This document shows, in pieces, positions 55,803 to 56,272 of a stretch of 64,000 nt of DNA (positions within the stretch are counted from its first letter, which is position 1; every line of letters begins with the position of its first letter). The stretch lies in contig NZ_NJGG01000002.1 of NCBI RefSeq assembly GCF_002224225.1, positions 124,001 to 188,000 of the forward strand. Direction: 5' to 3'. Both the position numbers and the translations under genes were made by a program. A model generated the notes under the pieces. It worked only from the letters and a program-made list of their open reading frames with translations. It had not been told where the DNA came from and made no database searches. Source of the stretch: Polynucleobacter cosmopolitanus (GTDB lineage Bacteria > Pseudomonadota > Gammaproteobacteria > Burkholderiales > Burkholderiaceae).

Positions 55803-55833
55803 AGGGTTGCTAAGCTCTGAGAGTGAACAAAGC

Positions 55834-55956
55834 TCACTCCGAGCGAGAACAAACCCACTCACGTCTTTGCCATTCACCTGGTTTTTCAGCAAAAACCATC
55901 CAAATGACCAAACCGCTCATCAAAGACCAAATTGGGTTAGAAATCAAAGTTTTCAT
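55834..55956 (-). CDS. SOS-controlled 40-residue membrane protein (candidate)
   Basis: A short frame of 40 codons, ATG at 55956 and TGA at 55834, too small for usual gene calls. AAAGGAG lies 8 bases before the ATG. The product begins MKTLISNPIW, has one hydrophobic span (about residues 9-23, IWSLMSGLVIWMVFA) and a charged C-terminus with EKPGEWQRREWVC. A promoter with consensus -35 TTGACA and -10 TATATT lies upstream, overlapped by a near-consensus LexA box, so expression is predicted to rise on DNA damage. I do not recognise the protein. Small SOS-induced membrane peptides elsewhere inhibit division or depolarise the membrane; a similar role is inference. Confidence 0.72.
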   Translation of the reverse strand: MKTLISNPIWSLMSGLVIWMVFAEKPGEWQRREWVCSRSE

Positions 55957-56001
55957 TTAAATACTCCTTTTAAAGCCAGTAGATACAAGGCAAAGTGCCT
56001 A

Positions 56002-56021
56002 TACTGTATAAATATACAGTA
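56002..56021. promoter_or_regulatory. LexA (SOS) box
   Basis: TACTGTATAAATATACAGTA is a CTGT-N8-ACAG site, differing at one base from the ideal Escherichia coli SOS box TACTGTATATATATACAGTA. It covers the -10 element of the leftward promoter in front of the 40-codon gene, the classic repression layout. Confidence 0.88.
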
Positions 56022-56038
56022 TTTTTAAAAGATGTCAA
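56011..56038 (-). promoter_or_regulatory. Sigma70-type promoter under the LexA box
   Basis: On the minus strand a consensus TTGACA (56033-56038) is followed after 16 bases by TATATT (56011-56016). The start of transcription would fall near 56003, giving a leader of about 45 bases with an AAAGGAG site. Confidence 0.75.
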
Positions 56039-56149: not shown

Positions 56150-56272
56150 ATGACGCTGGCTGAAATGATTTTTGATGGACTGGTTTGGTTGATCGGTGGT
56201 CTGGTGGTTTTGTATATGGTCCGCCGCTATTGGGTGATGTTTCGAGCCAGTAAAAAAGACTCTTCGCAATAA
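56150..56272 (+). CDS. Small single-span membrane protein (40 residues)
   Basis: A 40-codon frame, ATG at 56150 and TAA at 56270-56272. The product begins MTLAEMIFDGL, has one hydrophobic span (about 7-23) and a basic tail with MVRRYWVMFRASKK, so positive-inside topology is clear. Its own ribosome site is weak, but AAGGAGA of the next gene starts right at its stop, suggesting an operon with the 145-residue protein. Function unknown. Confidence 0.55.
   Translation: MTLAEMIFDGLVWLIGGLVVLYMVRRYWVMFRASKKDSSQ

What the first reader, a model, noticed from the sequence alone, without database searches (positions are those of the whole stretch)
55834..56038. Unannotated SOS-controlled 40-residue membrane protein
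A near-consensus LexA box (56002-56021) overlaps the -10 of a promoter with consensus TTGACA, and a start codon with AAAGGAG follows 46 bases downstream on the minus strand. The frame encodes one membrane span plus a charged tail. The arrangement matches known SOS-induced membrane peptides in design, but I do not recognise this protein. It is the strongest candidate here for an undescribed element.
Basis: partly seen in the sequence, partly recalled or inferred. Interest (0 to 1): 0.78.

Follow-up and report, generated by a model that had tools for sequence, protein, structure and literature searches.

The report
New SOS-controlled mini-protein family
A freshwater bacterium encodes a 40-residue protein that matches no named protein family, sits behind one of the three best predicted DNA-damage (LexA) switches in its genome and is conserved in related species, and that likely helps to pause cell division while DNA is repaired.

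Summary
In detail: box, promoter, ribosome site and 40-codon frame are where stated. TACTGTN8ACAGTA occurs three times in this genome (control 0): at recA, at umuDC and here. In 14 A-type genomes 19 of 20 box columns are invariant, against 9 of 60 before and 1 of 30 after; the frame is under purifying selection (pN/pS 0.17). A profile finds the family in 49 of 186 Polynucleobacter genomes, convincingly in none outside the genus in an order sample. All 28 carriers of two subfamilies have core LexA boxes; 21 other carriers have none.

Corrections: the membrane span is borderline here and weaker in sister subfamilies; the constant part is a short hydrophobic helix plus F-x-E-x3-E-(W/F)-x3-EWxC. 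SOS control is lineage-specific.

Unexpectedly, 0 of the 28 boxed-gene genomes has a LexA-like box before mraZ, head of the division cluster, while 134 of 186 genomes do: the SOS set looks like {recA, umuDC, this gene} or {recA, umuDC, mraZ}. On the tree this is one switch. Best reading: an SOS checkpoint effector, likely a division inhibitor; induction and function untested.

The parts
55834..55956 (-). 40-residue protein frame (MKTLISNPIW...EWVCSRSE), stop codon included; hydrophobic helix residues 8-23, conserved F22, E24, E33, W34, C36
   Evidence: conservation; pN/pS; helix
56002..56021 (-). LexA-type box TACTGTATATTTATACAGTA, the same 20 bases as the box of umuDC
   Evidence: 19 of 20 columns invariant in 14 A-type genomes
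56033..56038 (-). -35 hexamer TTGACA
   Evidence: last 20 bases before the box hold 8 of the 9 invariant columns of the 60 upstream
56011..56016 (-). -10 hexamer TATATT, inside the box
55964..55970 (-). ribosome-binding site AAAGGAG, 7 nt before the ATG; leader not unusually structured
   Evidence: leader fold z +0.69
55833..55847 (-). stem-loop across the stop codon, possible weak terminator
   Evidence: 80-nt stretch folds with z -2.56

Best explanation
The gene at 55834-55956 encodes a conserved 40-residue protein of a family found only in Polynucleobacter in these searches, is predicted to be repressed by LexA and induced by DNA damage, and likely acts as an SOS checkpoint effector that would hold back cell division during repair. 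Proposed working: LexA on the box (56002-56021) covers the -10; LexA self-cleavage on RecA filaments frees the promoter; a short, open leader with a strong ribosome site gives fast synthesis; the N-terminal hydrophobic helix (residues 8-23) would place the peptide at the inner membrane or in a groove of a partner, and the constant F-x-E-x3-E-(W/F)-x3-EWxC part would bind one target, most likely a divisome protein. Shown here: the sequence features, conservation of frame and box, the box shared with recA and umuDC. Inferred from the shared box: LexA binding and damage induction (I put this part alone at 0.93). Guessed from anatomy, from the lack of a detectable SulA and from the exchange with a LexA-like box at mraZ: the division-arrest function and its target.
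For: Box identical to that of umuDC and one of three full boxes in the genome; box is a phylogenetic footprint; core boxes in 14 of 14 A and 14 of 14 B genomes, two tandem core sites in 13 of 14 B genomes; frame under purifying selection in A, B and C; one convincing copy per carrier genome; no SulA (PF03846) over the cut-off in 25 genus genomes; genomes with the boxed gene have no LexA-like box at mraZ, 0 of 28, against 134 of 186 overall, and 0 of 19 readable mraZ loci of other genera have it. Known non-SulA SOS division inhibitors are small hydrophobic proteins: SidA, 29 residues (PMC4211646, passages), and SosA, 77 residues (PMC6851548, passages).
Against: No damage, binding or translation data. 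21 of 49 carriers have no LexA box at the gene, so the protein also has, or had, a use outside SOS. 137 of 186 genus genomes have no detectable copy. The hydrophobic stretch is short for a membrane span. The exclusion between the two boxes is a single split on the tree, so it is one event. MraZ may act in either direction: repressor in E. coli (PMC7761207, passages) but overexpression raised the cluster and gave smaller cells in Neisseria elongata (PMC9395523, passages). The SulA test is weak: Burkholderia cenocepacia is reported to have SulA (PMC7761207) yet PF03846 passed its cut-off in only 3 of 16 non-genus genomes of the order; one genus genome (G016) had a match below the cut-off.
Confidence: 0.38

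Rival explanations
1. It is an SOS-induced modulator of a repair or SOS protein (RecA, LexA, UmuD or the like), a soluble peptide whose hydrophobic helix docks on its partner instead of the membrane.
For: The hydrophobic stretch is too short for a span in B, C and K examples while F22, E24, E33, W34 and C36 are invariant over 28 members, as expected of a binding surface; the gene shares its box sequence with umuDC.
Against: The boxless C and K versions would work without SOS; no physical link to a repair gene in A or B loci.
Confidence: 0.2
2. It is an SOS-induced small membrane toxin of the TisB/DinQ kind that depolarises the membrane and makes dormant cells.
For: Size and LexA control as in TisB (29 residues; PMC11449926) and DinQ (PMC3567139), both seen as abstract openings only; hydrophobic N-terminal half.
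Against: No promoter-like site on the opposite strand pointing at the gene; leader not unusually folded, whereas such toxins are held back by RNA (recalled); one copy per genome; strongly conserved charged and aromatic tail.
Confidence: 0.15
3. It is a housekeeping small protein, not a checkpoint factor, whose expression was placed under LexA only in the A+B lineage.
For: 18 C and 3 K genomes have it without a LexA box; all 18 C loci share another palindrome, GCTCA-N5-TGAGC, upstream; purifying selection also in C.
Against: Box conserved over all 28 A and B genomes while the DNA around it changed; three different gene contexts, with the box in two of them.
Confidence: 0.17
4. The transcript acts as an RNA and the frame is incidental.
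For: Short transcript with a folded 3' end (z -2.56).
Against: pN/pS 0.17; variable columns are 29 third, 12 first and 6 second codon positions; 0 of 60 ungapped columns invariant after the stop; best Rfam match E 0.46, far below its gathering score.
Confidence: 0.02

Closest known systems
SidA (Caulobacter crescentus SOS division inhibitor, 29 residues)
   Same: Very small, hydrophobic, LexA-controlled, single gene (PMC4211646, passages)
   Different: No sequence relation shown here; SidA is an inner membrane protein that binds FtsW; here the hydrophobic helix is 11-16 residues, the conserved part lies after it, and no target is known
SosA / YneA / ChiZ / DivS (Gram-positive SOS division inhibitors)
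   Same: Small LexA-controlled proteins with one hydrophobic segment and a conserved part behind it (PMC6851548, passages)
   Different: Those have a full span and an extracellular C-terminus, several a LysM domain, and usually sit beside lexA; none of this here
TisB and DinQ (E. coli SOS-induced membrane peptides)
   Same: Size class and LexA control (abstract openings)
   Different: No antisense promoter-like site or structured leader found; conserved charged and aromatic tail
LexA control of mraZ
   Same: mraZ holds the third full-box slot in most Polynucleobacter genomes; LexA binding to an mraZ site was shown in vitro for a gut metagenome site (PMC3998124, passages)
   Different: MraZ is an unrelated protein, a regulator of the division cluster; B. 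subtilis LexA and Gram-positive gut sites, not Polynucleobacter

Membership tests
LexA (SOS) regulon of this genome | LexA protein present in the genome | tested here: met
   PF01726 match in G000, frame of 222 residues; 164 of 186 genus genomes
LexA (SOS) regulon of this genome | Same operator as the core genes recA, lexA, umuDC, placed on the promoter | tested here: met
   Same 20 bases as umuDC; full box also at recA, core box at lexA; overlaps the -10
LexA (SOS) regulon of this genome | Operator conserved at orthologous genes | tested here: met
   Core box in 28 of 28 A and B genomes; but 0 of 21 C and K genomes
LexA (SOS) regulon of this genome | LexA binding and induction by DNA damage | not testable with these tools
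   Needs EMSA and expression data
SidA-type SOS division inhibitors (analogy) | Transmembrane helix | tested here: inconclusive
   19-residue mean 1.59 in A, 0.02-1.02 in examples of the other groups; helix 8-23, mean pLDDT 70.4, pTM 0.34
SidA-type SOS division inhibitors (analogy) | Blocks division through a divisome partner | not testable with these tools
   No interaction or phenotype data
SulA | PF03846 domain | tested here: not met
   0 Pfam families for 17 members of the family
Type I toxin (TisB, DinQ) | Antisense RNA antitoxin or RNA structure that blocks translation | tested here: inconclusive
   No opposite-strand promoter-like site pointing at the gene, leader fold z +0.69; consensus scans are weak tests
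Any described protein family | Significant profile or fold match | tested here: not met
   Pfam 0, NCBIfam best E 0.15, PHROGs best E 0.056 (17 members each); PADLOC one of 28 members at E 0.0064 (HEC-01B, not followed); PDB sequences 0 at E 1; Foldseek PDB 0 at E 10

The most novel reading that the evidence does not exclude
The genus has exchanged its SOS division-control arm: in one clade LexA controls this 32-40-residue protein, in the other it controls mraZ, head of the division cluster, with recA and umuDC constant; the small protein is a new class of division inhibitor built from a helix too short to be a normal span and an EWxC tail.
Probability: 0.25. Interest if true: 0.8.

Novelty: new variant of a known kind. 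Interest (0 to 1): 0.6.

Why it matters
In this small genome the genes found with a LexA-type box are lexA, recA, umuDC and this one (two further intergenic core sites not followed), so this gene is the one SOS output without an explanation. Small proteins are missed by annotation, and what stops division after DNA damage in bacteria of this kind is not known here. If the exchange with a LexA-like box at mraZ means what it looks like, it would show a checkpoint output being replaced within one genus, and it can be tested with a few mitomycin C experiments on harmless lake bacteria.

Tried and rejected
Rejected as chance: the core CTGTN8ACAG alone as evidence (1 found, 0.95 expected in the window); seven of the 13 core sites in the genome, which lie inside long frames (the control had 7); a second 'EWLC' mini-frame before the HNH gene of some C-type loci, which comes from that gene's ribosome site read in another frame and is not kept in all eight loci read.

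Led nowhere: viral contigs (8 stretches, 0 relatives); order sample (399 genomes, 158 genera, at most 19 candidates scored per genome; two partial matches at E about 0.008 in G289 and G376 dropped); fold search (0 matches); Rfam (best E 0.46); papers with Polynucleobacter and LexA (3) or SOS response (4), none on its SOS genes by title and abstract opening (supplements, preprints and most subscription journals not held).

Dropped before counts: five weak genus matches (G160, G210, G028, G014, G221, E 0.04-0.09) and two weak second matches in G003 and G054. The K type (G034, G102, G192) is kept as a probable member only: it scores high because the profile contains it (L019), and it alone breaks the motif (27 of 28 members keep it). 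(0 of 186) is void, see below.

Full report
What is there. On the minus strand the stretch reads TTGACA, a 16-nt spacer, TATATT inside the palindromic box TACTGTATATTTATACAGTA (56021-56002), a leader with AAAGGAG, and a 40-codon frame (55956-55834). The neighbours look ordinary: convergent genes for a cysteine-rich CWC protein and an Smr-domain protein on one side; on the other a divergent 40-residue frame, a 145-residue protein without Pfam match and an acyltransferase.

Is the box a LexA box? The genome (G000, 1.78 Mb) has a protein with the LexA DNA-binding domain (164 of 186 genomes of the genus do). The pattern TACTGTN8ACAGTA occurs three times in it and not once in the reversed control: before recA (core 60 nt from the frame), before umuD (core 7 nt from the frame) and here (RecA, Peptidase_S24 and IMS domains). 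This box and the umuDC box are the same 20 bases. lexA itself has a core box one base before its frame. Of the 13 core sites CTGTN8ACAG in the genome (7 in the control) seven lie inside long frames, four are those just named, and two lie between other genes and were not followed. In the genus 184 of 186 genomes have at least one full box, typically two to four, with usually none in the control.

Is the frame a gene? In 14 A-type genomes the box begins 59-97 nt before the ATG; 30 of 40 residues are invariant, the box has 19 of 20 invariant columns, the 60 bases before it 9, the 30 after it 1, the 60 after the stop 0, all compared without gaps. Mean pN/pS is 0.17 over 91 pairs; four other frames give 1.35-2.59, and the antisense register that pairs third with third positions gives 0.28, which mirrors the sense signal. 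Two length classes of B give 0.25 and 0.28, four C sequences 0.25.

The family. A profile search of 186 genus genomes gives 54 with a match at E 0.1, of which I keep 49 (all below E 1e-12, one convincing copy each) and drop five; 137 have none detectable. The order sample of 399 genomes gives nothing convincing outside the genus. The protein database gives 35 relatives among 51 candidates, none with a Pfam domain, the few named ones 'hypothetical protein'. By length, context and sequence I sort the 49 genomes into A (14 genomes, 40 residues), B (14, 35-36 residues), C (18, 31-34 residues, up to 40 if an earlier start is used) and K (3, 37 residues, probable members only). B has a core box beginning 51-57 nt before the ATG in 14 of 14 genomes and a second core site 51-63 nt further upstream in 13 of 14. 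For C and K I read 20 loci (18 C, 2 K): none has CTGTN8ACAG in up to 250 nt upstream; the third K genome, G034, has none in 200 nt. All 18 C loci carry GCTCA-N5-TGAGC instead; the 2 K loci do not. Contexts differ: A sits between the small divergent gene and the Smr gene in 8 of 8 stretches read, B follows the same gene (cluster c7, from its sequence probably an acyltransferase, not tested) in 11 of 12, C has an HNH gene downstream in 8 of 8, not obviously in one operon with it. Invariant over 28 diverse members are F22, E24, E33, W34 and C36; F-x-E-x3-E-(W/F)-x3-EWxC holds in 27 of 28, the K member being the exception.

Is it a membrane protein? Perhaps. The best 19-residue mean is 1.59 for the window's protein and 1.02, 0.21, 0.02 and 0.46 for one example each of B, C1, C2 and K. 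AlphaFold2 gives one long helix, 8-23 (block mean pLDDT 86 for residues 11-20), and a loose tail, mean pLDDT 70.4, pTM 0.34, with no match in the PDB library. What selection keeps is a short hydrophobic helix and what follows it.

An unexpected partner: mraZ. In four genomes without the gene and in one C genome the box at about 145 kb, or its counterpart, lies between coq7 and mraZ, about 240 nt before mraZ, the first gene of the division cluster. A pattern tied to the repeats just before mraZ finds a core box there in 134 of 186 genomes, with control 0: A 0 of 14, B 0 of 14, C 15 of 18, K 3 of 3, genomes without the gene 116 of 137. Reading 15 mraZ loci directly agrees: six C, K or gene-less genomes have it (in G101 and G054 with imperfect outer bases), nine A and B genomes do not. 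Of 20 mraZ loci from other genera 19 could be read and none has the core box in 450 nt. A tree of Coq7-MraZ-RsmH proteins puts A+B together against the rest (support 1.000, 15 genomes, unrooted); with six other-genus genomes A+B has 0.765 and the other side 0.997. So the mraZ box looks like a gain of the main clade, and the exclusion between the two boxes is one event, however many genomes show it. Whether the box drives mraZ, and what MraZ does here, is open: repressor of the cluster in E. coli (PMC7761207, passages), but overexpression raised the cluster and gave smaller cells in Neisseria elongata (PMC9395523, passages). LexA at mraZ has a precedent in gut metagenomes, where the authors also suggest that the link between SOS and division arose several times (PMC3998124, passages).

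How it likely works. LexA control is a strong prediction (0.93 by my estimate). The function is inference. I commit to an SOS checkpoint effector, most likely a division inhibitor, at 0.38: known non-SulA inhibitors are small, hydrophobic and LexA-controlled (PMC4211646 and PMC6851548, passages); no SulA passed the cut-off in 25 genus genomes, a weak test because the family model also rings in few relatives although a Burkholderia SulA is reported (PMC7761207); and the other clade has its third full box at the division cluster. The modulator, housekeeping and toxin rivals stand at 0.20, 0.17 and 0.15.

Novelty. No library or fold search names the family; one of 28 members touches a PADLOC model at E 0.0064, not followed. 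Searches for Polynucleobacter with LexA or with SOS response returned three and four papers, none on this subject by title and abstract opening. LexA-controlled small proteins are a known kind; this family and the exchange with mraZ are new as far as these searches reach.

Noticed in passing
L106:2013-2032, L107:2061-2080, L108:2052-2071, L109:1922-1941, L117:1976-1995: LexA-type box between coq7 and mraZ, about 240 nt before the first gene of the division cluster; core form in 134 of 186 genus genomes, in 0 of 19 readable mraZ loci of other genera.
   Followed up: partly
L031:1082-1582 (minus strand) and box 1501-1520: The umuDC box may also serve a divergent gene for an HNH-type protein (Pfam HNH just below its cut-off).
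   Followed up: no
window 56150-56272 (plus strand): A second 40-residue frame with a long hydrophobic stretch, divergent from the SOS gene; no Pfam match; a similar start is seen in L062.
   Followed up: no
L139, L141-L157 (C-type loci): Palindrome GCTCA-N5-TGAGC 15-63 nt before the gene in 18 of 18 C-type loci, possibly the site of another regulator that replaced LexA.
   Followed up: partly
L076 (CALPOM020000114.1): Record titled Thermoflexus hugenholtzii carries a B-type locus; a contig of the same length and number is in G025, held as same genus, so the title looks wrong.
   Followed up: no
L015, L016, L017, L018, L039-L042, L044-L051: Two core LexA-type sites 51-63 nt apart before the gene in 13 of 14 B genomes; tighter repression is possible.
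   Followed up: no
L112:2040-2059 (G010): Full box between two divergently placed frames of 492 and (on the other side) unassigned genes; not identified.
   Followed up: no
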